From positions 1-21,013 of the IMG/VR virus record IMGVR_UViG_3300032296_001925: DNA of 21,013 nt; one strand, given 5' to 3'. Position numbers and translations under genes: made by a program. Under the pieces are notes generated by a model. That model searched no databases and had not been told where the DNA came from. It saw nothing but the letters and a program-made list of their open reading frames with translations. This document shows, in pieces, positions 899 through 21,013 of the stretch (position 1 is the first letter of the stretch; each line of letters starts with the position of its first letter). Source of the stretch: a virus.

Positions 899-2026
899 AT
901 GAGCAACAAGATCATGCAGTTCGCACTTCAGTTCGACGACACCGAAACCTTTATTGCCGAGACCGGGCACAAGCGTACGGTCATCGTGGAAGGCCCGATG
1001 GGCTGGGGCAAGTCCTCGCTGCTGCCAGCACTCGGCAAGCGCCCGGAGTTCGCCAACCACACACGGGTGTACATCGACTGCACGACCAAGACCGACAGCG
1101 GTGACTTCTTCATGATCAAGTACAGCGCGGACGGGGAGACGTTCCGCACCGTGCCGCACGAAGAGTTGGGCCTGCACTTGGATGGGCCGGTGATCCTGAT
1201 GTTCGACGAGATCGGCAAGATGCCGCGCTCGGCGTTCAATTCCGTGCTGCGCGTCCTGTACGAGCGCAAAGGTCCGGGCAACAGCAAGCTGCACGACGAC
1301 TCTATAATATTTTCCACCACTAACCTCGCCGTCGAGGGGCTGGGTGACCTGTTGTTACCCCATGGCCGCAACCGCGTCACAGTGGTGACGATGCGCAACC
1401 CCGACCAGCACCGGTGGCTAGGCTGGTCGATCTCGGCGGGCGTGCACCCGCTGGTGCAGTCATGGGCCAAGGACACGCCGGAGTTGTTCACGTCCTTCAC
1501 CGACTTCGCCAGTGCAGAGGAGTGCGCTACCCGCACGCAGGGCATGATCTACGACCCCCGCGCCGTGAACAAGCCGGTGGCGTTCGTGACTGGCCGCTCG
1601 ATGGAAGGTGCCAGCGACATATTCCACTGCCGCGATGCCGCACTGGCCGCAGGTCGCGCGTTCTCCGACAAGATACTGCACGCTGGGCTGGTAGGTACGG
1701 TTGGTCCGGCGGCTGCGGGTAACCTGATGGCGTACATCAGCATGTTGAACGACTTGCCCAGCAAGGACGAGATCGCCAACGACCCGCTGAACGCACGCAT
1801 CCCGGTTAACGGCACGGCGGTATGCATGCTGGTGTATCGCGTGCTGGCTACCATCGAGCGCGCATGGGCACCGCAGTGGATGACGTACCTGCGCCGGCTG
1901 GACACGGTGGCGCAGGGGCTGTTCGGCAACGGCACCCGGGTGAAAGGTTACCCGCGCCTCAACGCCATCGTGCACTGCAAAGAGTACCAAGAGTGGGCGA
2001 CCATCAACGCGCACCTGTTCAAGTAA
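899..2026 (+). CDS. MoxR-like AAA+ ATPase
   Basis: A 375-aa AAA+ ATPase. Walker A is GPMGWGKS (residues 32-39), Walker B is VILMFDE (98-104), and a sensor-1-like segment IIFSTTNLA covers 136-144. HGRNR (155-159) could supply an arginine finger. The compact N-terminal ATPase core and the association with a VWA protein fit MoxR-type AAA+ proteins, which pair with VWA partners as chaperone-like remodelling machines. The start is supported by AAAGGAG ahead of the ATG. The VWA gene follows after 25 bp with its own Shine-Dalgarno, and the DUF3150-like gene precedes. Expression probably comes from the promoter at 785-813, perhaps controlled at the palindrome 856-874. The substrate in phage infection is not known. 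The ATPase call is firm; the MoxR label is inferred partly from neighbours. Confidence 0.85.
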   Translation: MSNKIMQFALQFDDTETFIAETGHKRTVIVEGPMGWGKSSLLPALGKRPEFANHTRVYIDCTTKTDSGDFFMIKYSADGETFRTVPHEELGLHLDGPVILMFDEIGKMPRSAFNSVLRVLYERKGPGNSKLHDDSIIFSTTNLAVEGLGDLLLPHGRNRVTVVTMRNPDQHRWLGWSISAGVHPLVQSWAKDTPELFTSFTDFASAEECATRTQGMIYDPRAVNKPVAFVTGRSMEGASDIFHCRDAALAAGRAFSDKILHAGLVGTVGPAAAGNLMAYISMLNDLPSKDEIANDPLNARIPVNGTAVCMLVYRVLATIERAWAPQWMTYLRRLDTVAQGLFGNGTRVKGYPRLNAIVHCKEYQEWATINAHLFK

Positions 2027-2051
2027 CCCAACCAGACCGAGGAGCACGAGC

Positions 2052-3278
2052 ATGTTGTTTCAAACGAACCTCACGACCCTGCAACGCATAGACATGTGCT
2101 ACACCCAGATCACGGCGCACGAGCGGTACCGTCCGATTGCCGGGGTGCTGTTGATTGGCACGTACTCTGTGGAAGAGACACTGCCGACTGCAGCCACCAA
2201 TGGCCGCGACGAGTTCTACGGCAAGAAGTTTGTGGACGAGGTGTTGGTGAAAGATTCCTACCTGCGGTTTGTGATCCTGCATGAGGTACGCGGTCACAAG
2301 TTGCTGCGGCATCTGACTCACCTGCAGTGGATGTACGACGAAGACCCCGAAACCGCCAACCGTGCCTGCGACTCTGTGATCAACCTGCTGATAGTAGACG
2401 AGAACGCTGCCGACAAGTTTGCCGAGATGCCGATGAAGGACGGCAAGCCGCTGGGTCTATTCGACGAGCGGTTCCGTGGCATGGACGAGGTGCAGGTGTA
2501 CAACATCCTGCGCAAGGAGAAGGAGCAGCAGTCAGGCCAAGGCGGGCAGGCCCAGCCGCAGCAACAGGACGGCTTCGACTCGCACGACTGGGAAGCAGCC
2601 AAGCAGTTGTCCGAGCCGGAGCAGGCAGCACTGGCGAAGGACTTGGAGCAGGCCATACGGCAGGGACACATGCTCGCGGCGAAGACTGGGTCACTGAGCA
2701 ACGGCATCGATATCAGCAACTTGTTGCAGGTAGAAGTTGACTACCGTTCGGTGCTGAGTGAGTACTTGTCGGTCATGATGAAGGGTGGCGATGACGCAAC
2801 ATGGCGCACACTCAGCCGCAAGTATCTGGCGATCAACGAGCTACGTCCCGCTCGCGTGCATGAGGAAGTGGAAGACTTAGTGATCGCGGTCGATGCGTCT
2901 GGCAGTACGTTCAGTCAGGATCAGTTGACCAAGTTCATGTCCGAGATCGTTGGCATGCTGGAGTGCGTCACCGTGAACCGGGTGCACCTGCTGTACTGGG
3001 ACACAAAGGTAACGCAGCATGAGACGTACGGCAGCGAGCACACGCCGCTCACAGAACTGGCATCAAGCACCAAGCCAACGGGCGGCGGCGGGACGTTAGT
3101 ATCGTGCGTGCCCCGGTACCTGCAGAGCAATCAGATAAAACCTCCAGTGGTCATTGTGCTGACCGATGGTCGCTTAGATGACAATTGGGGGCAGTGGGAT
3201 ACAGATGTTCTGTGGTGCGTGCTGAACAACAAGAAGGCGCGGCCCACAGTGGGCAAGACAATTCATATCAACCTGTAA
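2052..3278 (+). CDS. VWA-domain protein with metallopeptidase-like N-terminus (DUF2201-like)
   Basis: A 408-aa protein. The N-terminal part resembles the metallopeptidase-like domain that precedes VWA domains in DUF2201-type proteins. The expected zinc motif HExxH appears as HEVRGH (77-82), with one extra residue, followed by His87, so zinc binding or catalysis may be altered. Residues 155-185 are a Gln/Gly-rich linker. The C-terminal VWA domain shows the metal-ion-dependent adhesion site: DASGS (281-285), the Thr in TGGGGT (343-348) and TDG (371-373). It probably works with the upstream AAA+ ATPase, as in MoxR-VWA pairs. GAGGAG precedes the start. The VWA call is strong; peptidase activity is doubtful because of the altered motif. 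Confidence 0.8.
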   Translation: MLFQTNLTTLQRIDMCYTQITAHERYRPIAGVLLIGTYSVEETLPTAATNGRDEFYGKKFVDEVLVKDSYLRFVILHEVRGHKLLRHLTHLQWMYDEDPETANRACDSVINLLIVDENAADKFAEMPMKDGKPLGLFDERFRGMDEVQVYNILRKEKEQQSGQGGQAQPQQQDGFDSHDWEAAKQLSEPEQAALAKDLEQAIRQGHMLAAKTGSLSNGIDISNLLQVEVDYRSVLSEYLSVMMKGGDDATWRTLSRKYLAINELRPARVHEEVEDLVIAVDASGSTFSQDQLTKFMSEIVGMLECVTVNRVHLLYWDTKVTQHETYGSEHTPLTELASSTKPTGGGGTLVSCVPRYLQSNQIKPPVVIVLTDGRLDDNWGQWDTDVLWCVLNNKKARPTVGKTIHINL

Positions 3279-5833: not shown

Positions 5834-6027
5834 CGTGCAAGTGCAACCCAGATACATGGGCAAACGAAACTCCACCGCCGGTATGCAGTGTGTACACCGC
5901 AGGCATCGACGGATATTGCGAAGAGTGCTGGCACGACAAAACGTGTCACCTGTTGAGCGAAGAAGAGATCAGAGCAGACGAGCGGGCCAAGGTGCTCGCA
6001 GAGATCAAAGGGAGGCTGGGGTTATGA
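5830..6027 (+). CDS. Cys-rich small protein, possible zinc-binding
   Basis: A 65-aa protein with cysteines at 3, 5, 19, 30, 33 and 39 and His40, including a CEEC pair, in its first 40 residues; this could bind zinc. The C-terminal third is a charged helix (EEEIRADERAKVLAEIKGRL). I chose ATG 5830 rather than 5824 because AGGAG at 5818-5822 is 7 bases away from 5830 but only one base from 5824, and 5830 forms the ATGA overlap. Phages often carry such small ribbon-like proteins; the function is unknown. Confidence 0.6.
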   Translation: MTCKCNPDTWANETPPPVCSVYTAGIDGYCEECWHDKTCHLLSEEEIRADERAKVLAEIKGRLGL

Positions 6028-6239
6028 CACGAGACGACATCATCCGCATGGCGCAAGAAGCAAGTGGCACAAACGATATCGTACTGACTACCTATGATTG
6101 CCTCGCCACATTCGCCGCCCTTGTCGCAGCACAGCGCCAGTGGGTCGGGCTTACAGCCAAGGACTTAGCAGAAATACCGCCAAGCGCGTACGAGGGTGCA
6201 ATTTGGGCAGATGCAAAGCTAAAGGAGAAGAACACATGA
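6024..6239 (+). CDS. hypothetical small protein, first member of a diverged pair
   Basis: A 71-aa protein starting MTRDDIIRM and containing FAALVAA, both phrases repeated in the next gene. It overlaps both neighbours through ATGA junctions. The segment around TFAALVAAQRQW is the kind of short helix common in small phage proteins. The pair looks like a tandem duplication with later divergence of the rest of the protein: 18-bp (6033-6050 and 6245-6262) and 21-bp (6111-6131 and 6383-6403) segments are identical at DNA level. Function unknown. Confidence 0.6.
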   Translation: MTRDDIIRMAQEASGTNDIVLTTYDCLATFAALVAAQRQWVGLTAKDLAEIPPSAYEGAIWADAKLKEKNT

Positions 6240-6508
6240 CCCGCGACGACATCATCCGCATGATGCGGGAGGCTGGGTGGTCTGGCATCTACACGCAATG
6301 GGCAGAACCGACAGATAAGCCAGATTGGTCGCCCTTTAAGGAGAGTCTGACCGTCCCCGTCACGATGGAGCAGATCGAACGCTTCGCCGCCCTTGTCGCA
6401 GCAGCAGAGCGGGAGGCGTGTGCTGGATTGTGTGACGAACGTGAAAGAGCCAATTTATATGGCCTGAAGGAATGCGCCGCAGCAATCAGAGAACGAGGTG
6501 TGAAATGA
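6236..6508 (+). CDS. hypothetical small protein, second member of a diverged pair
   Basis: A 90-aa protein with the same N-terminal MTRDDIIRM as the gene before it, then WSGIYTQWAEP, then RFAALVAAAEREACAGLCDER and AAAIRERG. The last part is a helical module I have seen at the ends of many small phage proteins, without assigned activity. It starts in an ATGA overlap with AAGGAG upstream (6222-6227) and ends in another ATGA overlap. It appears co-translated with its neighbours. Confidence 0.6.
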   Translation: MTRDDIIRMMREAGWSGIYTQWAEPTDKPDWSPFKESLTVPVTMEQIERFAALVAAAEREACAGLCDERERANLYGLKECAAAIRERGVK

Positions 6509-7299: not shown

Positions 7300-7586
7300 A
7301 CGCAACAGACACACAAGTAGGCGGTTAGCACTACAAAGACATGGCGATCCAGCCGGTGGACTACATCCACAAGAACAACCTGTCGTACCTTGAGGGCAAC
7401 GTGATCAAGTACATCACGAGGCACCGGAGCAAGGGTGGTAAGGCGGATGTCGAGAAGGCACTGCACTACTGCCAACTTATACTAGAACTTGTATATAACG
7501 AGGTGAGCGAGCCGGTGGTTATCACTGTGCCAGAGCCGTCGAAACCGAGACGCGGTAGACCGCCCGGCAAGAAGCGGAGCAAGTGA
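7296..7586 (+). CDS. DUF3310 protein interrupted by an in-frame amber codon
   Basis: The frame from ATG 7296 reads MNATDTQVGG, then TAG (7326-7328), then HYKDMAIQPVDYIHK. DUF3310 proteins have the N-terminal signature VGG-x-HYK-x-M-x-IQP, so the amber codon replaces exactly the variable residue between VGG and HYK. The rest is intact: LEGNVIKYITRHRSKGG and KALHYCQLILEL are typical. The C-terminus carries RRGRPPGKK, an AT-hook-like DNA-binding tail. ATG 7296 has GGAG 8 bases upstream and an ATGA overlap; the internal ATG 7341 has no clear ribosome site but could restart translation, giving 81 aa. Possibilities are amber suppression, restart, a recent mutation or a sequencing error. The biochemical role of DUF3310 is unsettled. 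Confidence 0.7.
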
Positions 7587-7587
7587 C

Positions 7588-8046
7588 ATGGACATTCAAC
7601 GAGAACTCGGCAACCTCGGCGTTAACCCAATAAAGTACGACAAGGAAGGGCCGAAGTACTCTATGGCGTCGATTGAAGCGGTAATCGTAAAGAAGATTTT
7701 TATTCAAACCTACTTTAAGGGTATTACGAAGCCTATGAACAACGACATACAAACAGCGATTGACCTCACCCAAGATGCAACCAAACGGTTCTCCATTGCG
7801 TTGGATACTTTTACAAAGACGCATGAGAATTTTGCAGAGAGTGCTAAGAAAGCCAGTTCATCTGTGCGCACCGCAGCAGACACTATGGCCGCCGGATTAG
7901 CTAAGGTTGAGAAGGCCGCAAACTTTGACCGCCTTGAGCGCATGGTTGATTTGCTGGAACGTGCAGCGGCAGCAATGTCTACTCTTGCCGAGATGGAGAG
8001 GTCGGGCCAGCTTACTAAGCTGTCAGAAGCAATCAAAAAAGGGTAA
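7588..8046 (+). CDS. hypothetical protein, 152 aa, extended helical
   Basis: I do not recognise a family. After about 45 N-terminal residues of mixed character, the rest is a long amphipathic helical region rich in Ala, Glu and Lys (ESAKKASSSVRTAADTMA, LERMVDLLERAAAAM), suggesting a coiled coil or helical bundle. The start follows the DUF3310 stop by one base. It is the second gene upstream of the 36-bp repeat array. No cysteine motif, signal peptide or membrane helix. Confidence 0.6.
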   Translation: MDIQRELGNLGVNPIKYDKEGPKYSMASIEAVIVKKIFIQTYFKGITKPMNNDIQTAIDLTQDATKRFSIALDTFTKTHENFAESAKKASSSVRTAADTMAAGLAKVEKAANFDRLERMVDLLERAAAAMSTLAEMERSGQLTKLSEAIKKG

Positions 8047-8051
8047 GCCAA

Positions 8052-8282
8052 ATGAACAGAGACGACACACGATTCATCCTTCCTGATTCTTTCGTTCGGG
8101 AGAAACCGGAGTGGACGAAGGACGTGGACAAGCACGTCAAAGCCTTTCTCAAAAAGGGCGGCAAGATATATCAGGCAGAAATGGGCGAGAGCTTTTACGC
8201 CAAGCACTACCAAGCAGGCAACAAGCACGCCTTCGTCATCAACCCGAATAAAGATAGAGCCGCCGTGCTGAAGAAACCCTGA
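8052..8282 (+). CDS. hypothetical small protein, 76 aa, directly upstream of the repeat array
   Basis: A basic protein (VDKHVKAFLKKGGKIYQ) with unknown function; the N-terminal MNRDDTRFILPDSFV suggests a soluble globular fold. Its last codons are shared with the first in-register repeat B of the array (AGAAACCCT at 8272-8280), so coding and array sequence overlap. The ribosome site is weak (AAAGGG about 10 bases upstream). Whether it takes part in the neighbouring guide-array system is unknown. Confidence 0.55.
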   Translation: MNRDDTRFILPDSFVREKPEWTKDVDKHVKAFLKKGGKIYQAEMGESFYAKHYQAGNKHAFVINPNKDRAAVLKKP

Positions 8283-9054
8283 TATCCGAAGCGAGTCAAA
8301 AGCCCAAAGGAAACCAAGATGGCATAACGAGTCAAAGCCGGTAAGAAATCCAACCATGCGGAACGAGTCAGTGAGGAATAGAAACCCAGATAAAAGAAAC
8401 GAGTCATGTAGTTTGAGAAACCCAGCATTACAAAACGAGTCAACCGAACGGAGAAAACCTTAGTTTCGAAACGAGTCAAGACTGAGTAGAAAACCAACCC
8501 GAAAGAACGAGTCATGGACATTTAGAACTCCATAAGTCAAAAACGAGTCAAAATCACTGAGAAACCCGGGATCGTCAAACGAGTCAGTACTGAGTAGAAA
8601 ACCATCAGAAGGAAACGAGTCAATATAGTGAATGAAACCAACTTAACGGAACGAGTCAAAAGAATGTAGTAACCCTACAGATCGAAACGAGTCATTGATT
8701 GAAAGAAACCCAGCCTCCAGTAACGAGTCAATGCCAGTAAGAAATCCAACCACGCGAAACGAGTCAGGAATGGGTAGAAAACCAACCCCAAAGAACGAGT
8801 CAGATTACCTGAGAAACCCAATGATCCCAAACGAGTCATGGAGCCAGAGAAACCCAACGATTCCAAACGAGTCAAGTCTGCTAAGAAACCCACAAGCAGG
8901 GAACGAGTCAAAATTGTCAAGAAACCCATGAAGATTCAACGAGTCATTGGGACTTAGAAACCCAACACTGACGAACGAGTCATTAATACCTAGAAACCCA
9001 AAATGTGAAAACGAGTCAGACTGAAATAGAAACCCATTGCGAGTAAACGAGTCA
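8272..9054. repeat. TIGR-like dual-repeat guide array, 36-bp period, 22 copies
   Basis: Repeat A, AACGAGTCA, begins at 8290, 8326, 8362 and every 36 bp to 9046; 21 of 22 copies are perfect and the first reads AGCGAGTCA. Repeat B, AGAAACCCA with variants, begins 18 bp after each A, with one more copy at 8272-8280 before the first A. Both variable segments between them are 9 nt, so each unit is 9+9+9+9. Spacers look unrelated except for a few similar pairs. There is no palindrome and no long CRISPR repeat. The reading frame AAC-GAG-TCA is open by design in the repeats, but I count 6 stops in the spacer codons, about what chance predicts, so it is not a protein repeat. From memory, TIGR arrays of TIGR-Tas systems make 36-nt guide RNAs with two 9-nt spacers. 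Transcribed strand is not shown; all neighbours are rightward. Confidence 0.9.
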
Positions 9055-9063
9055 ATCAACCTA

Positions 9064-9072
9064 AACGAGAGC
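9064..9072 (+). promoter_or_regulatory. hybrid terminal repeat overlapping the ribosome site of the tas-like gene
   Basis: Where the next repeat B would fall (18 bp after the last A) the sequence is AACGAGAGC: the first six bases match repeat A instead. Its GAGAG (9067-9071) is the only Shine-Dalgarno-like sequence before ATG 9080, with 8 bases between. A protein that binds array repeats in RNA could therefore also bind here and control its own translation; that is inference. Confidence 0.45.
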
Positions 9073-9079
9073 AATTAAA

Positions 9080-9943
9080 ATGAGCGATATTAAAATAATG
9101 GTACGCGGTGCATACGACATCCAGAAGTTGCGCATCATGATGGGCAACCGAATCGTTGCGAACTTCAAAGCGAAGCTAGGCCAGAAGCCCGGCATGAGCG
9201 AAGAAGAACTGGAGGAAGCCGAGAAGACAATCCTTGCTTCACTACGTGCGTCCTACAGGAAGATCACCGATGGTGTCACCACACTGCCGAGGCAGTCGAG
9301 CTTCAAAGGCGACGAAGTCATCAGCAGCTACACCGAGTTGGTGCTGGTAGACCAATACCTCAGTCTGGAGCAGCAGGAAGACAAGCAGTTCAGCCGCCTC
9401 AAGAACGTTCTGAAAGACTTCCCGATCTACAACGAGTTCCTTGAAGGCATCTACGGTGTCGGTCCTGCCATGGCCGGGGTTATCGTGTCTGAGATCAACA
9501 TCCACGCTGCACAGTACCCGTCGAGCCTGTGGAAGTACGCAGGACTGGACGTAGCAGGAGATGGCAAAGGCCGCTCGCGCAAGAAGGAGCATCTGGAAGA
9601 GTCCGAGTACATCAACAAGGACGGCGAGACCGCTACCAAGATGGGCATCACCTTCAATCCGTTCCTGAAGACCAAGCTGGTCGGTGTGCTGGGGTCGTCG
9701 TTCATCAAGCAAAGTCCTACCAAGTGCCAGTACCGCAAGATATACGACGACTACAAGCACCGGCTGGAGAACATGCCCGCGCACGCTGACAAGACGAAAG
9801 GCCACCGACACAACATGGCCGTGCGTTACGCGGTGAAACGTTTCCTCGCTGACTTATATGTAGCATGGCGCACGCTTGAAGGACTGCCTGTAGCGACTGA
9901 GTACAGCGAAGGCAAACTGGGCATCATTCACCGAGCCGCGTGA
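9080..9943 (+). CDS. TasA-like, Nop/IS110 C-terminal-domain protein without nuclease domain
   Basis: A 287-aa protein. Residues 123-157 contain GIYGVGPAMAGVIVSEI and SLWKYAGLDV, the hallmark of the Transposase_20 domain (helix-hairpin-helix-like GIGP, then YAGL) found in the C-terminal half of IS110/IS116 transposases and structurally linked to Nop domains. Residues 158-196 are a charged insert; GHRHNMAVRYAVKRFLADLYVAWR (241-264) matches the terminal helices of that domain. Residues 38-110 are long charged helices, suggesting the coiled coil next to a Nop domain. The N-terminal DEDD/RuvC catalytic domain of IS110 is absent, and there is no HNH, so it should bind but not cut DNA. The gene follows the 36-bp array by 25 bp and ends 11 bp before a tiny membrane gene. 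Alternative: a degenerate IS110 relic, disfavoured by the intact frame and the array. Confidence 0.8.
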   Translation: MSDIKIMVRGAYDIQKLRIMMGNRIVANFKAKLGQKPGMSEEELEEAEKTILASLRASYRKITDGVTTLPRQSSFKGDEVISSYTELVLVDQYLSLEQQEDKQFSRLKNVLKDFPIYNEFLEGIYGVGPAMAGVIVSEINIHAAQYPSSLWKYAGLDVAGDGKGRSRKKEHLEESEYINKDGETATKMGITFNPFLKTKLVGVLGSSFIKQSPTKCQYRKIYDDYKHRLENMPAHADKTKGHRHNMAVRYAVKRFLADLYVAWRTLEGLPVATEYSEGKLGIIHRAA

Positions 9944-9954
9944 GGAAAACAAAG

Positions 9955-10056
9955 ATGACCACTGAAGAAAAACTCGGCGCGGTAGGGATGCTGCTGGTAG
10001 TCTTGGCGCTCTGCTACTACCTGCCCCGCTACATCAACTCTCTCTATGGCTTCTAA
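9955..10056 (+). CDS. 33-aa single-pass membrane peptide
   Basis: A short frame with AGGAAA 8-13 bases upstream: MTTEEKLG, then a hydrophobic helix AVGMLLVVLALCYYL (residues 9-23), then PRYINSLYGF. It looks like a small inner-membrane peptide with a cytoplasmic acidic N-terminus. It starts 11 bases after the tas-like stop, so it is probably co-transcribed with it. Phages use such peptides in lysis, superinfection exclusion or host takeover; nothing here decides. A link with the guide system is possible only by position. Confidence 0.5.
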   Translation: MTTEEKLGAVGMLLVVLALCYYLPRYINSLYGF

Positions 10057-10057
10057 C

Positions 10058-10243
10058 ATGCGCGAGACAACACTACCCCACAACTGCCACCTGTGTGGCA
10101 AACCCGCCGACGAAGTCCTCGCTCACGAGGACGACCGCACCGTCCGTGCCGGGTGGCTATGTACTGCCTGCTGGCCGAAAGACGGCGCGTGGACCAAGGC
10201 CATTGGCCGCGAGCGTAGCTACAAGGAGACCCGCCATGACTGA
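10058..10243 (+). CDS. zinc-ribbon-like small protein
   Basis: A 61-aa protein with two CxxC pairs, C10/C13 (CHLC) and C35/C38 (CTAC), spaced as in a small zinc ribbon, and a basic C-terminus (AIGRERSYKETRHD). ATG 10058 follows the previous stop by one base and suits re-initiation; ATG 10046, inside the membrane-peptide gene, would add four residues. No separate Shine-Dalgarno is visible for either. Function unknown; nucleic-acid or protein binding is the usual guess for such ribbons. Confidence 0.6.
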   Translation: MRETTLPHNCHLCGKPADEVLAHEDDRTVRAGWLCTACWPKDGAWTKAIGRERSYKETRHD

Positions 10244-10379
10244 AACAGAATGGGCCGCCTTCATGGCCCGCCTGCAAGAACTCCCGCCCATGGGAGCTAG
10301 ACCTCCACAGAGCACGCAAGACTTCTGGAGAGAGATGGATGCGCTTGCGGACAAAAAGGAAACAGACCAATGGACATAA
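10236..10379 (+). CDS. hypothetical small protein, 47 aa
   Basis: It starts at ATG 10236 with AAGGAGA upstream and overlaps the previous gene by 8 bases; its end overlaps the DNA polymerase start by 10 bases. The product, MTETEWAAFMARLQELPP then a polar tail with DFWREMDALADKK, looks like two short helices. Its main effect may be translational coupling into the polymerase gene. No recognised family. Confidence 0.5.
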   Translation: MTETEWAAFMARLQELPPMGARPPQSTQDFWREMDALADKKETDQWT

Positions 10380-12253
10380 TTACGCTCGATTTTGAAACCT
10401 TTTACAGTAAAGACTTCGGCTTCAAGAAGCTAACTACAGAGCAGTACGTACGCAGCCCCGACTTTGAAGAGATACTGATAGGCATCAAACGCAACAGCGA
10501 AGAAACCATCTGGATAAGCGGCGAGCACGGAGACCTCAAGCAGTATTTGCACAAGCATTACGACTGGGCAAATTCGGCGTTGCTTGCGCATAACACCTTG
10601 TTTGATGGGGCCGTCCTTGCGTGGCGCTTTGGCATACATCCTAAGATGTACCTCGATACGCTCTGCATGGCGCGAGCCATCCACGGTGTAGAAGCCGGCG
10701 GCTCACTAGCCGCGCTGGCGGAAGCCTACGGTATAGGCACTAAAGGTGATGAGGTAGTGCGCGCCGAGGGTAAGCGCAGGGCTGACTTTTCCGCTGAGGA
10801 ACTCAGCGTGTATGCCAACTACTGTATGAATGACGTGAATCTCACTTATGCTCTTTTTGATATATTCATTAACAAGCACAAGTTCCCACACAAGGAACTG
10901 AAGGTCATCGACCTTACCTTGCGGATGTTCATCGATCCTATGCTGGTGCTGGATGTGGCTAAGTTGTCAGACCACTTGGACGCCCTGAAGGACCGCAAAG
11001 AGAATCTCCTCAATGAGTGCGGCATAAGCAAAGACGACCTCATGTCCAACCCGAAGCTGGCTGAGGTGTTGCGGGGTATGGACGTTGTCCCGCCCACTAA
11101 GATCAGCGCGCGTACAGGCAAGGAGACGTTCGCGTTCGCCAAGACCGACGAAGGTTTCAAGGCACTGCAGGACCATGAGGATACCCGCGTGCAGATGCTG
11201 GTAACGGCGCGGCTTGGGGTAAAGAGCACGCTGGAGGAGACGCGCACCGAGCGGTTCATCGACATAGCGACTCGCGGCAAGACGATGCCAGTTCCCATCA
11301 AATACTACGCAGCACACACGGGGCGTTGGGGTGGTTATGACAAGATAAACCTCCAGAACCTCCCGTCACGCGGCAAAGACGCGAAGGTGCTCAAGCAGTG
11401 CATAGTGGCACCCGAGGGATACACCATTATCCAAGCGGACTCGGCGCAGATTGAAGCGAGGGTGCTGGCGTGGTTGGCGGAGCAGAACGATCTGTTGGCG
11501 GCGTTTACGCGCGGCGAAGATGTGTACAAGCAGATGGCTGCCAAGATTTACGGTATCCCCATATCCGAAGTAACCGATGCCTACCGGTTCATAGGTAAGT
11601 CAACGATACTCGGGGCAGGGTTCGGCATGGGCGCGGTACGGTTCCGTGAGCAGCTAAAAGGTTTTGGTGTGGCTATATCGGTCGAAGAAAGCCAACACAT
11701 TATCCGAGCCTATCGGGACGCGCACCCTGCTATTACGTTGCTATGGCGTAACGCCCAGACTGCCTTGCAGGGACTTTACTGTGGAGAAGAATACACGCTC
11801 GGCAGAGCCGGCGTGGTCCGCATGGTGCCGGAAGAGAAGGCTATCCGCATGCCGTCCGGGTTGTTGATCCGGTATCCCGAGCTAAAGGCCAAAGTGTCTG
11901 AAGACTCCTTGACCCCGGAATTCAGCTACAAAACGCGCAGAGGTTGGGAGCGTATTTATGGGGGCAAAATTATTGAAAACCTCACCCAAGGAATCGCCCG
12001 GTGTGTCATAGCGGACCAGATGTTGGAGATAGCCAAGCGGTATAGGGTATTGCTAACCGTTCACGATTCTGTAGTATGTTGCGTGCGCGACGAGGAAGTC
12101 GATGCAGCTGCCAACTATATTGATGCTTGTATGCGATACGTACCGGACTGGGCTAAACACCTCCCGGTTCGTGGTGACGTTGAGGTCGGGAAGAGCTACG
12201 GAGCGTGTGTTAAATGGAAACCAAAACCCCAAGCTGGTCATTCAGCAGCATAA
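10370..12253 (+). CDS. family A DNA polymerase with 3'-5' exonuclease (PolA-type)
   Basis: A 627-aa replicative polymerase with no 5' nuclease domain, the usual phage layout. Exonuclease: DFETF (D7, E9), HNTLFDGAVL (74-83, with D79) and YCMNDVNLTY (151-160, D155). Polymerase: motif A IIQADSAQIEAR (353-364, catalytic D357), motif B from R406 through K410 to F418-G419, and motif C VHDSVV (564-569, D566). Aligning the O helix R-xxx-K-xxx-x, the residue equal to E. coli Phe762 is Leu414. In viral PolA surveys the Phe/Tyr/Leu state at 762 correlates with replication style, Leu being linked to slower or temperate types. The gene overlaps its neighbours at both ends (10 and 40 bases) and begins the replication module. 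Confidence 0.93.
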   Translation: MDIITLDFETFYSKDFGFKKLTTEQYVRSPDFEEILIGIKRNSEETIWISGEHGDLKQYLHKHYDWANSALLAHNTLFDGAVLAWRFGIHPKMYLDTLCMARAIHGVEAGGSLAALAEAYGIGTKGDEVVRAEGKRRADFSAEELSVYANYCMNDVNLTYALFDIFINKHKFPHKELKVIDLTLRMFIDPMLVLDVAKLSDHLDALKDRKENLLNECGISKDDLMSNPKLAEVLRGMDVVPPTKISARTGKETFAFAKTDEGFKALQDHEDTRVQMLVTARLGVKSTLEETRTERFIDIATRGKTMPVPIKYYAAHTGRWGGYDKINLQNLPSRGKDAKVLKQCIVAPEGYTIIQADSAQIEARVLAWLAEQNDLLAAFTRGEDVYKQMAAKIYGIPISEVTDAYRFIGKSTILGAGFGMGAVRFREQLKGFGVAISVEESQHIIRAYRDAHPAITLLWRNAQTALQGLYCGEEYTLGRAGVVRMVPEEKAIRMPSGLLIRYPELKAKVSEDSLTPEFSYKTRRGWERIYGGKIIENLTQGIARCVIADQMLEIAKRYRVLLTVHDSVVCCVRDEEVDAAANYIDACMRYVPDWAKHLPVRGDVEVGKSYGACVKWKPKPQAGHSAA

Positions 12254-15475: not shown

Positions 15476-16405
15476 ATGAGCAATATCACGCTTATGAACG
15501 ACATGCCCGCCAGCTACCGAGACCTCATCTCGCAACTGGAACCGGAAACCAACCTCGTTGGTGGGGAGTACAACTCTACTTCCCGCATCAGTATTCGCGG
15601 TGGGGTGTTTCGGAAGGTAGTCAACGGCAAAGAGATCGCTGAACTTGAAGAACGTAAGCTGCTCGCTGTCGTAGTAAAAGCCGCTCCTATTTCGCGCATG
15701 TATTTCGCTGGACAGTACGTAGCAGGAGAAGCAAACCCACCGACTTGCTGGTCTACCGATACCTCAAGTGGGCGTCCTGCTACAGACGTTATCGTGTCGG
15801 ATAGGCAGTCGCCTACTTGCTTTGATTGCCCACAGAACATCAAAGGTAGCGGGCAAGGCGAGAGCAGGGCATGCCGGTACCGTCAACGTATCGCTATCAT
15901 GCTTGCCGACGCTGACGGCGCGGTGGTCTCCTCCACTGTGTACCAGCTAGATTTGCCGGCAACTAGTATTTTTGGTGACGACCCAAAACGCATGGCAATG
16001 CAGTCATACGCCCGGTTCCTGAGTCAGCACAAGTCGCCGCTCGCAGCTATCCTGACCGAGATTCGTTTCGACACCAACAGCAGCACGCCTAAGCTCTGCT
16101 TCCGTCCTGTACGTCCGCTCACTGAGGATGAGTTGATGGTGGCTATCCATGCGCAGAAAGACCCTGAGACCGCGCGTTTGGTGAAGTTGACGGTGAAGCC
16201 GAAAGACACCGTTGCCTTGGAAGCCCCCAAGCCTGCTGCACCTAAGCAAGAACCTGCACCGAAGAAGGCCAGCATGTTCGATATGCCTTCTGATGATGAC
16301 GAAGTACCCGAACCGAAGGTACGAGAAAATAAAAAGAAAGCCGCCCCGGCTGCCGCGCCTAGCGTCAACCTCAGCAGTTTATTGGATCAGTTCGACGACC
16401 AGTAA
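15476..16405 (+). CDS. probable phage ssDNA-binding protein
   Basis: A 309-aa protein. An N-terminal beta-rich domain carries PPTCWS, PTCFDCPQNIKGSGQGES and RACRYRQR (cysteines near residues 90, 113, 116 and 131, a likely zinc site), followed by QLDLPATSIFG and LTEIRFDT...KLCFRPVRPL. Residues 235-295 are a Pro/Ala/Lys-rich flexible linker, and the end LLDQFDDQ is an acidic tail of the type SSBs use to contact replication proteins. That architecture (folded core, disordered linker, acidic tip) and the place between helicase and primase support an SSB role; I recall similar phage proteins annotated that way but cannot confirm it. Strong terminator follows. Confidence 0.6.
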   Translation: MSNITLMNDMPASYRDLISQLEPETNLVGGEYNSTSRISIRGGVFRKVVNGKEIAELEERKLLAVVVKAAPISRMYFAGQYVAGEANPPTCWSTDTSSGRPATDVIVSDRQSPTCFDCPQNIKGSGQGESRACRYRQRIAIMLADADGAVVSSTVYQLDLPATSIFGDDPKRMAMQSYARFLSQHKSPLAAILTEIRFDTNSSTPKLCFRPVRPLTEDELMVAIHAQKDPETARLVKLTVKPKDTVALEAPKPAAPKQEPAPKKASMFDMPSDDDEVPEPKVRENKKKAAPAAAPSVNLSSLLDQFDDQ

Positions 16406-19436: not shown

Positions 19437-19462
19437 CCCCCCGACCATCGGGGGGTTTTTTT
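19437..19462 (+). terminator. strong rho-independent terminator closing the rightward replication block
   Basis: CCCCCCGA and TCGGGGGG form an 8-bp stem around CCA, followed by seven T. It lies 60 bp after the primase stop. The T-tract overlaps the stop codon of the leftward gene, so it is tuned to rightward transcripts; on the other strand no T-run follows the hairpin. Confidence 0.9.
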
Positions 19463-21013
19463 ATTCAAAGAACTCGCCTTCGTCTAGGTCTTCCAACTGT
19501 CTACGCATCACTGTCGCACGCCGCTGCGGACTTATCGTGATGCCGTTAAACATCCTTGCTACTTCGTCCGTGACTCGGTGCTGACGCACCGACCGCTCTT
19601 TCGTGTCGGCAGTGATGCGCACTTCAGGATGGCGTGTGTTGAACTCGTCGATGTCTTCTTCAATAGCCATGAATTCATCGATATCGTTCTCGCGCATTGC
19701 CTTGTACCGTTTACGCAGCAGCTTGGTACGGTTCTCGGTAATCACACGGTCCACGCGCTTGTCTCGGGCGTTGATCTCTAGCTGCCTTGTGTAGCCAGCC
19801 GGGGCGAAGCCCAAGGTTTGCCCGAGGATAGTAAGGGGGCCGAAGTCTTCGGTAATCGGGTCGCCACGCAGGGTAGTAGCACCTTCTGTCGCGTACCGAG
19901 CAGCTTTCATGGCGTTGGCGGCAACGCTGGGCAGCATCTTCTCCATACCGCGCGCTATCTCCCCTTCTTGCAACAAAGGCAGCCCCTGATCCAGCATGCG
20001 TTGGGCTATCCCTACGATTGGACCGCCGGCCATTTCTATCCCCTGCATAACCAGACTTTCCTGCTCTTGGTTGGGGAGCGAACGGAAAATGAGATTCGAC
20101 ATGCCGATACGCGGCGCGATGTCCAGACCGAAGGAATTTACCAACCCGGAGTACATACCCTCACCGAAATACGACGCGAGGATACTGTCAGCGTCCTCAT
20201 CTTCATCGTCCAGTAGGAACATGTTAGCCAGCTCGGTTATCAGGCCCATCATAGGCACGCCCTGTATACCGGAAAGAATACCGGACATGGCGAACAGCCC
20301 AAGCAGTTGTTTCTTGGCGTACTTTCTTTCTTCTGGTGTAGCGCCCTTGAGCGCTTGCTTGGCCATCTTTAGCTGCAGATAGACCATAGAAATACCGAAA
20401 CGCTTGTACATCAGCAGCACACTACCCAAGCTGTTCTGAGCTATCTTGGGCGCAGTCTCCAACATAGAGCCGCTGTTCGTGTGCTCGGTCTCCAGCACAG
20501 CTTCGTGCGCTGCAGCTACGTAGTCTTCATCGGTAAGGGGCTTCCCGCTCTTGGCCTTCTCGTCGAGTAAAAGATCGTATGTTGCCTTCATCGTAACTTG
20601 ACGGGTGAAGCGTTCGCCTTGATGAAACGCATAGCCCATAACCGAGTTGGCTTTGTCAGTTATTGAGTTGCCTGCGGTGTTCATCTCCAACAAGTCAGAG
20701 ATAGTAGTCGCGTTCGCCATACCTTGCTGGTTCATTACATCCACCAGTATTTTGTTACGGCGCAGTTCTTCGGCACCCAACTTCTTGAATGACTCAGGCA
20801 CCGTGTCAGGTTTGGAGAAATCGATGTTGGTGAACGAGGGACCGTCGAATGCTGTACCGCCTTCAACTCCTTCGAACGTGTCCAACGTACGGCGCGTACC
20901 AGTCGCCATGTACAGCTTGCGCGCCCGGTTCATGGCCGACATGGTTTTCCCATAGCCGTGCTTGCCGGCCAAGTAGGGGTACACTGCCATCGGAAGCGTG
21001 AACAGGTTGACCA
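19461..21013 (-). CDS. PLxRFG-type large virion protein, C-terminal part, 5'-truncated
   Basis: The leftward frame is open from the right edge (VNLFTLP precedes the ATG at 20990), so this is the C-terminal 516 residues or so of a larger protein. MYKRFGISMVYLQLKMAKQAL, KKQLLGLFAMSGILSGIQGVPMMGLI, an acidic DDEDEDAD run and SYFGEGMYSGLVNSFGLDI match the conserved C-terminal region of phage PLxRFG-domain proteins, very large proteins thought to be internal virion or injection components. The IQGVPMMG region is hydrophobic and may enter membranes. The last 90 residues are charged and helical. It converges on the primase gene across the shared terminator, marking the start of the structural module. 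Family assignment is from memory. Confidence 0.7.
   Translation of the reverse strand, partial: VNLFTLPMAVYPYLAGKHGYGKTMSAMNRARKLYMATGTRRTLDTFEGVEGGTAFDGPSFTNIDFSKPDTVPESFKKLGAEELRRNKILVDVMNQQGMANATTISDLLEMNTAGNSITDKANSVMGYAFHQGERFTRQVTMKATYDLLLDEKAKSGKPLTDEDYVAAAHEAVLETEHTNSGSMLETAPKIAQNSLGSVLLMYKRFGISMVYLQLKMAKQALKGATPEERKYAKKQLLGLFAMSGILSGIQGVPMMGLITELANMFLLDDEDEDADSILASYFGEGMYSGLVNSFGLDIAPRIGMSNLIFRSLPNQEQESLVMQGIEMAGGPIVGIAQRMLDQGLPLLQEGEIARGMEKMLPSVAANAMKAARYATEGATTLRGDPITEDFGPLTILGQTLGFAPAGYTRQLEINARDKRVDRVITENRTKLLRKRYKAMRENDIDEFMAIEEDIDEFNTRHPEVRITADTKERSVRQHRVTDEVARMFNGITISPQRRATVMRRQLEDLDEGEFFE

What the first reader, a model, noticed from the sequence alone, without database searches (positions are those of the whole stretch)
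8290..9054. Each unit is exactly four 9-nt blocks, and the base before repeat B is never C
Repeat A starts every 36 bp without one insertion or deletion over 21 steps, and repeat B always starts 18 bp later. Between A and B, spacers are unrelated, yet the ninth spacer base is A, T or G in all 21 units (about 0.2% by chance if bases were equal) and the first base of repeat B is always A. Such length control means the RNA, not just the sequence, is under selection, probably because the protein measures both spacers. The never-C base may be a processing or stacking position.
Basis: seen in the sequence. Interest (0 to 1): 0.72.

Follow-up and report, generated by a model that had tools for sequence, protein, structure and literature searches.

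The report
Phage TIGR array with paired ninth bases

Summary
The array has 22 AACGAGTCA-type repeats at exact 36-nt steps, with AGAAACCCA-type repeats 18 nt downstream, 9-nt spacers, and no C before repeat B (0 of 21). It starts earlier than stated: an in-register repeat lies at 8272. It is a TIGR array (edge repeat = A, loop repeat = B) upstream of a nuclease-less Tas protein, TasA, at 9080-9943 (NCBIfam NF052498, 119 bits, cut-off 100; Foldseek top hits TasH and TasR).
"Never C" alone is weak: P about 0.04, and 33% that some one of 18 columns lacks C. Relatives show depletion, not absence (C at position 9: 114 and 82 of 1791 units, against about 19% at positions 1-8).
The real signal is a pair. 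The ninth bases of spacers A and B in the same unit covary: Watson-Crick in excess, pyrimidine-pyrimidine rare. It is the only one of 81 position pairs to do so (z 13.9, next 2.9). It holds in two hold-outs (z 10.1, 5.7), not across the edge repeat. The founding paper reported no obvious A-B covariation. I read it as a scaffold pair at the dyad; a shared central target base pair is the main rival. A natural target is tentative.

The parts
8254..8262 (+). probable degenerate (5'-truncated) edge repeat ATAGAGCCG inside the end of the upstream gene
   Evidence: in register 36 nt before 8290; 6 of 9 to AGCGAGCCA, by eye; inference
   Evidence: same in L001
8290..9054 (+). TIGR array: 22 edge repeats (AACGAGTCA; starts 8290 + 36k to 9046), 21 loop repeats (AGAAACCCA type; starts 8308 + 36k to 9028), 9-nt spacers between
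8307..8307 (+). spacer A position 9, the never-C base of the first listed unit (recurs at 8307 + 36k to 9027)
   Evidence: A7 T9 G5 C0 of 21
8325..8325 (+). spacer B position 9, its covarying partner (recurs at 8325 + 36k to 9045; also 8289)
   Evidence: A13 G6 T2 C1 of 22; pairing shown over all arrays, not significant in the window alone (8 of 21 Watson-Crick, P 0.18)
8326..8361 (+). unit with spacers AAGCCGGTA / ACCATGCGG; candidate target in related phage contig L402:12179-12196
8722..8757 (+). drifted copy of unit 8326 (ATGCCAGTA / ACCACGCGA, same loop variant AGAAATCCA)
9064..9072 (+). 3'-truncated edge repeat AACGAG followed by AGC; lies where the ribosome-binding site of tas should be
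   Evidence: position and GAGAG-type purine run kept in L001, L003, L005, L007; inference
9080..9943 (+). tasA: 287-aa Nop-domain protein without a recognised nuclease domain
   Evidence: NF052498 119 bits over cut-off 100; no Pfam hit; TasR 9mty E 2.2e-26 and TasH 21kl E 1.4e-16 by profile; AlphaFold2 pLDDT 82; Foldseek TasH/TasR top
15476..16405 (+). window's own ortholog of the gene holding the candidate target in L402; its motif differs (SIRGGVFRKVV against SIRGSRFRMVV)

Best explanation
This is a TIGR-TasA locus of a tailed phage. The array is transcribed and cut in each edge repeat (AACG|AGTCA) into 36-nt tigRNAs: half edge, spacer A, loop repeat, spacer B, half edge. Each repeat carries box C (..CA) and box D (A-G/A..); the second and seventh bases of a repeat pair. 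A TasA dimer holds the two repeats symmetrically, so each guide is fixed between two anchors and its length is set at nine. By analogy with TasR, spacers A and B read opposite strands of about 18 bp. The ninth base of each spacer, next to box D, is not a free guide base: the two ninth bases of one tigRNA are constrained as a pair (Watson-Crick or purine-purine, rarely pyrimidine-pyrimidine), most likely because they meet at the pseudo-twofold axis of the RNP. Shown here: the array, the Tas protein, the repeat pairing, the ninth-base covariation and its anchoring next to box D. Inferred: processing, targeting, and the physical contact. TasA probably binds and blocks DNA of rival phages of the same lineage.
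For: TasA identity. Near-duplicate units keep spacer-loop-spacer together, which with the variable A-rich repeat B makes A the edge and B the loop. Edge bases 2 and 7 in modal repeats of 164 arrays: G-C 102, A-U 36, G-U 24, A-C 2, although the fetch pattern allowed all four. Covariation: 371 units, Watson-Crick 142 against 87 expected; hold-out 1, stated before looking, 1039 non-redundant units in 104 arrays, 243 against 159, 0 of 2000 within-array permutations reach it, pyrimidine-pyrimidine 32 against 63; hold-out 2, prokaryote genomes, 302 units in 29 arrays, 95 against 65, 0 of 2000, pyrimidine-pyrimidine 11 against 26; all 5 repeat classes; 72 arrays above and 14 below expectation; across-edge control 101 against 115. 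Anchoring: in 10-nt spacers the C-poor base is the last (6%), not the ninth (18%), and the last bases covary (26 against 17.2, z 2.6; base 9, z 1.1). For RNA-level rather than target-level: A9 pyrimidine / B9 purine Watson-Crick pairs exceed the reverse (TA 249, CG 60 against AT 166, GC 30), although the target is symmetric to swapping spacers.
Against: Plain RNA-RNA pairing should tolerate G-U, as the box C/D pair does (24 of 164 arrays), but G-U is depleted at the ninth bases (37 against 58). Among 140 near-duplicate unit pairs (at most 4 differences) 37 differ at one ninth base and none at both, so no compensatory double change was caught. Arrays with a near-fixed ninth base (47 arrays, 434 units) show no extra covariation (17 against 15.6). 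In the window alone the effect is not significant (P 0.18). Log-linear pair models and a shared-base-pair model fit about equally (AIC 1459.9 and 1462.7 against 1464.4; 3896.0 and 3894.7 against 3896.2). In the TasR structure all nine spacer bases pair with target. Units with 8-nt spacers show nothing (30 units).
Confidence: 0.55

Rival explanations
1. Shared central base pair: the two spacers overlap by one base pair of a 17-bp target, so A9 and B9 read the two strands of one pair and are complementary; when the base is not read it defaults to a purine.
For: Predicts Watson-Crick excess without G-U and near absence of pyrimidine-pyrimidine, both seen; an 8-parameter version fits the first set (G2 11.4, df 7, P 0.12). 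IS110 bridge RNAs, relatives of Tas, have guides that overlap at the core dinucleotide (PMC11208160, passages).
Against: Fit is marginal on the hold-out (P 0.044) and needs a pyrimidine bias on the spacer-A strand that positions 1-8 do not show in L251. The one plausible target (L402) has two bases, not one, between the 8-nt cores. TasR uses abutting 9+9 sites.
Confidence: 0.27
2. Target-step selection: the guides abut and the central step of the target is chosen to avoid pyrimidine-purine steps, for instance because of DNA bending.
For: Pyrimidine-pyrimidine A9/B9 pairs are the same thing as YR central steps and are rare.
Against: The excess is of AA, TT, CC and GG only; GA/TC are depleted while AG/CT are neutral, which simple flexibility does not predict. 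TasR had no target-motif requirement.
Confidence: 0.1
3. Ordinary composition bias or a chance column, or repeat drift (the repeat is 10 nt in some arrays and the ninth base is its decaying edge).
For: The window column alone is P about 0.04; 47 of the 94 hold-out arrays with at least 4 units have a near-fixed ninth base, as in Salicola phage CGphi29 (A in 6 of 7 at both positions).
Against: Decay explains purine richness but not within-array covariation, which survives within-array permutation in two hold-outs.
Confidence: 0.05

Closest known systems
TIGR-Tas (Faure et al. 2025, PMC12045711), TasA type
   Different: array upstream of tas and apparently in one transcript with it (downstream in the L012-L022 group); repeats AACGAGTCA/AGAAACCCA instead of UG..CCA; ninth-base covariation, where the paper states no obvious A-B covariation
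TIGR-TasH of Salicola phage CGphi29
   Same: homologous Nop domain (27.8% over 78% of the query); array of the same repeat type found in L222
   Different: HNH nuclease and 8-nt spacers there according to the paper; here no nuclease domain and 9-nt spacers with a variable ninth base
IS110/IS621 bridge RNA system
   Same: two guides on opposite strands, Nop-like domain, weak fold match (TM about 0.39)
   Different: transposase domains absent here; arrays instead of one bridge RNA
CRISPR arrays
   Same: regular repeats with variable spacers
   Different: two alternating 9-nt repeats, 9-nt spacers; no cas gene recognised among the products I searched

Membership tests
TIGR-Tas | two distinct alternating 8-12-nt repeats with about 9-nt spacers | tested here: met
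TIGR-Tas | adjacent Nop-domain Tas protein | tested here: met
   NF052498 above cut-off; profile hit to TasR and TasH chains; Foldseek
TIGR-Tas | box C / box D motifs shared by edge and loop repeats, with an internal pair | tested here: met
   first base the same in edge and loop in 162 of 164 arrays; edge bases 2-7 pair G-C, A-U or G-U in 162 of 164
TIGR-Tas | array ends with a truncated edge repeat and a terminator | tested here: inconclusive
   truncated edge AACGAG present at 9064; no + strand terminator-like site in 7500-10500; here the array runs into tas
TIGR-Tas | processing into 36-nt tigRNAs bound by Tas | not testable with these tools
   needs small-RNA sequencing
TIGR-Tas | RNA-guided DNA binding through both spacers | not testable with these tools
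   only a candidate target (L402) by sequence
TasA (subtype without nuclease) | no HNH or RuvC domain | tested here: met
   no Pfam family at E 0.001; 287 aa, N-terminal 93 residues helical in the model; catalytic residues not examined one by one
CRISPR-Cas | cas genes and single 25-36-nt repeats | tested here: not met
   two 9-nt repeats; no cas family in the products scanned
IS110 transposon | DEDD and Tnp catalytic domains | tested here: not met
   no Pfam transposase hit; fold match only partial. PHROGs calls it 'transposase'

The most novel reading that the evidence does not exclude
The two guides of a tigRNA are not independent: the bases next to the two box D motifs form an obligate pair at the centre of the RNP (Watson-Crick or purine-purine), a general rule in TIGR arrays of phages, bacteria and archaea. 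In variable arrays the usable guide is then 8+8 nt with a two-base centre that cannot be chosen freely. The window's array aims at orthologous sites in rival phages of its own lineage, here a conserved motif of the gene at 15476-16405.
Probability: 0.3. Interest if true: 0.8.

Novelty: new member of a known kind. Interest (0 to 1): 0.55.

Why it matters
The locus itself is a further member of a system described in 2025. The covariation is a sequence rule for tigRNAs that I did not find in print (searches 'TIGR-Tas', 'tigRNA', 'Tandem Interspaced Guide RNA' with others, and 'TasH/TasR/TIGR array/tigRNA'); the founding paper says the opposite in passing. If right, it limits how guides should be designed at the ninth base, separates scaffold from guide, and gives a test for how the two halves of the RNP meet. 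If the L402 target is real, it would be a first lead on what TasA is for: competition between related phages.

Tried and rejected
Targets among related phages: exact and near matches of unit targets in 0.33, 1.06 and 2.04 Mb of held DNA, arrays masked, gave no clear excess over shuffled spacer pairings at any gap; a later test with up to 2 mismatches in 1.08 Mb likewise (window and near-clade units at gap 2 with at most 1 mismatch: 5 of 121, shuffled mean 2.5 per gap; mid 4 of 118 against 2.2; far 2 of 115 against 2.8). That set includes L402, found by its own exact match.

Unit 8722: an IMG/VR scan gave 31 contigs; 9 homologous ones share its 16-nt core at gap 2. I first took this for a target. 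Within that family (87 loci, 0.84 Mb) 3 of 21 window units hit at gap 2 with at most 1 mismatch, one of them the seed itself, against 0.17 per gap for shuffled pairs, but 3 hits also fell on other gaps. The sister-unit scan then produced an equally large homologous cluster at the wrong gap (L400 and others, gap 3) and did not hit this family, so I dropped it as unproven. Unit 8830 (33 contigs) gave no convincing cluster.

Codon periodicity of differences between near-duplicate units, to infer the target gap: none. Overlap between units' targets within arrays: slight excess at one gap (35 against 22), swollen by low-complexity duplicates, not used. Never-C as a rule of its own: rejected. A pooled hold-out table was confounded by arrays with a fixed ninth base (its across-edge control was also 'significant'), so I went over to within-array permutation.

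Rows dropped: units with letters other than ACGT, units with a spacer other than 9 nt (looked at apart), and units within 4 differences of one already kept (not, which count distinct units); arrays under 4 or 6 units where stated.

Full report
What was checked. The same arrangement is in L001. After the last full repeat A comes AACGAG in register at 9064-9069, just before the start codon at 9080.

Chance. The spacers are 14% C; shuffling letters within spacers leaves that column without C in 3.7% of trials, and some one of the 18 columns without C in 33%. On its own the column proves nothing.

What it is. The gene at 9080-9943 reaches NCBIfam NF052498 'TIGR-Tas system RNA-guided endonuclease' (119 bits, cut-off 100). 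A profile of 18 sequences, the window's and 17 relatives (alignment A1), finds TasR 9mty (E 2.2e-26) and TasH 21kl (E 1.4e-16) in the PDB. An AlphaFold2 model (pLDDT 82.3) has TasH and TasR complexes as its best Foldseek matches. Pfam finds nothing and the protein has only 93 residues before the region that matches TasR, so it is the nuclease-less TasA type; the NCBIfam word 'endonuclease' should not be taken literally. The founding paper (PMC12045711; sections 4, 7, 8 and 10 read and passages) describes alternating 8-12-nt edge and loop repeats, 9-nt spacers, 36-nt tigRNAs, a C2 dimer that holds edge and loop alike, box C and box D, and guides on opposite strands.

Which repeat is which. Drifted copies of a unit keep spacer-B repeat-spacer together (8326 and 8722; 8470 and 8758), repeat B is A-rich and variable, and repeat A nearly invariant: so A is the edge and B the loop. 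The array of relative L014 stops at AACG directly before a hairpin, which suggests the cut AACG|AGTCA and a mature RNA of 5+9+9+9+4 = 36 nt. In 164 arrays the modal edge has bases 2 and 7 as G-C (102), A-U (36), G-U (24) or A-C (2); first bases of edge and loop are the same in 162. That is the box C/D pair.

Relatives. A Tas search gave 37 loci, of which 31, and the window, hold arrays. Neighbouring phage genes gave further loci, bringing arrays with usable units to 37. Among arrays found through the gene, 935 of 976 adjacent intervals are 9-nt spacers (redundant contigs not removed).

The ninth base. C is depleted at position 9 of both spacers: 114 and 82 of 1791 units (6% and 5%) against about 19% and 18% at positions 1-8. 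Some arrays break the rule: L250 has C at A9 in 11 of 16 units, mostly with G at B9 (8 of the 11). In 10-nt spacers the C-poor base is the last one (6% of 124), not the ninth (18%): the constraint goes with box D.

The pair. In 371 units, A9 and B9 were complementary 142 times against 87 expected, the strongest of all position pairs tested; pyrimidine-pyrimidine pairs numbered 2 against about 22 expected. I wrote predictions down and tested new arrays. Pooled testing was confounded by arrays with a fixed ninth base. With permutation inside arrays, 1039 non-redundant units in 104 arrays gave Watson-Crick 243 against 159 (z 10.1; 0 of 2000), pyrimidine-pyrimidine 32 against 63, G-U 37 against 58. 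In the 47 variable arrays: 225 against 143; pairing B9 with the A9 of the next unit across the edge: 101 against 115. The 47 near-fixed arrays show nothing (17 against 15.6). Genomes: 302 units in 29 arrays, 95 against 65, 0 of 2000. Every repeat class tested shows it (5 of 5). Over all 1791 distinct units A9-B9 has z 13.9 and the next of 81 pairs 2.9. By array, 72 exceed and 14 fall short of expectation. The window's own 21 units are too few (8 against 6.1, P 0.18). The paper states that spacers A and B show no obvious covariation.

How it may work. Three readings remain. (a) The two bases touch each other, or one protein site, at the dyad of the RNP: supported by anchoring to box D, by the excess of A9-pyrimidine/B9-purine over the reverse (309 against 196 Watson-Crick units), which a target symmetric to swapping spacers should not give, and by arrays in which such a pair is modal. 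Against: G-U is avoided, unlike in the box C/D pair, and no double change is seen among 140 near-duplicate pairs. (b) Both bases read one shared central base pair, as the overlapping guides of IS110 do at their core (PMC11208160, passages); anchoring to box D fits this as well, since both spacers' 3' ends lie at the target's centre. (c) The central step of the target is chosen. Statistical fits do not separate (a) from (b). I favour (a) at about even odds.

Targets. No clear excess of matches was found in held phage DNA. Of 138 contigs hit by three IMG/VR scans, one, L402, is homologous to the window. It holds the exact 16-nt core of unit 8326 with two bases between (AAGCCGGT-TC-CGCATGGT, 12179-12196) in its ortholog of window gene 15476-16405, at a motif SIRGSRFRMVV that reads SIRGGVFRKVV in the window. 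Read in the same frame, the drifted unit 8722 would give CQFRVV there, differing only at residues that vary among the nine motif copies seen. From recall of the collection's size I judge a chance hit in a related phage at roughly 1% or a little more, but this is one case, picked out after seeing it. At its centre A9 mismatches and B9 matches.

Setting. The nearest named phages by DNA polymerase are Rhizobium RHph_TM and Pseudomonas KPP25-like phages at 30-32% identity. Other papers cited (PMC11208158, PMC12385481) were seen in passages only; the rest as search listings.

Noticed in passing
L012-L022 against window, L001-L011: The array sits upstream of tas in the window's near clade and downstream of it in the next clade, with otherwise alike repeats: the array or gene order has switched.
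   Followed up: no
window 9080-9943: PHROGs phrog_4285 calls TasA proteins 'transposase, integration and excision', likely a misleading label inherited from IS110 likeness.
   Followed up: partly
window 899-3278: An AAA ATPase (PF07728) followed by a VWA/metallopeptidase-like protein (DUF2201): a MoxR-VWA-like pair in a phage; PHROGs labels the second 'HNH endonuclease'.
   Followed up: no
window 6000-6508: Two neighbouring reading frames with the same start, MTRDDIIRM..., look like tandem paralogs.
   Followed up: no
window 19461-20990, minus strand: End of a very large DarB-like protein gene, convergent with the replication module.
   Followed up: no
47 hold-out arrays, e.g. L124, L111: Arrays whose ninth base is near-fixed, often as G/G or A/A, so in effect 10-nt repeats and 8-nt spacers (also L233 and L241).
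   Followed up: partly
all spacers, positions 1-8: Both spacers are purine-rich, C being the rarest base overall: possibly a preference for stable RNA-purine/DNA-pyrimidine hybrids.
   Followed up: no
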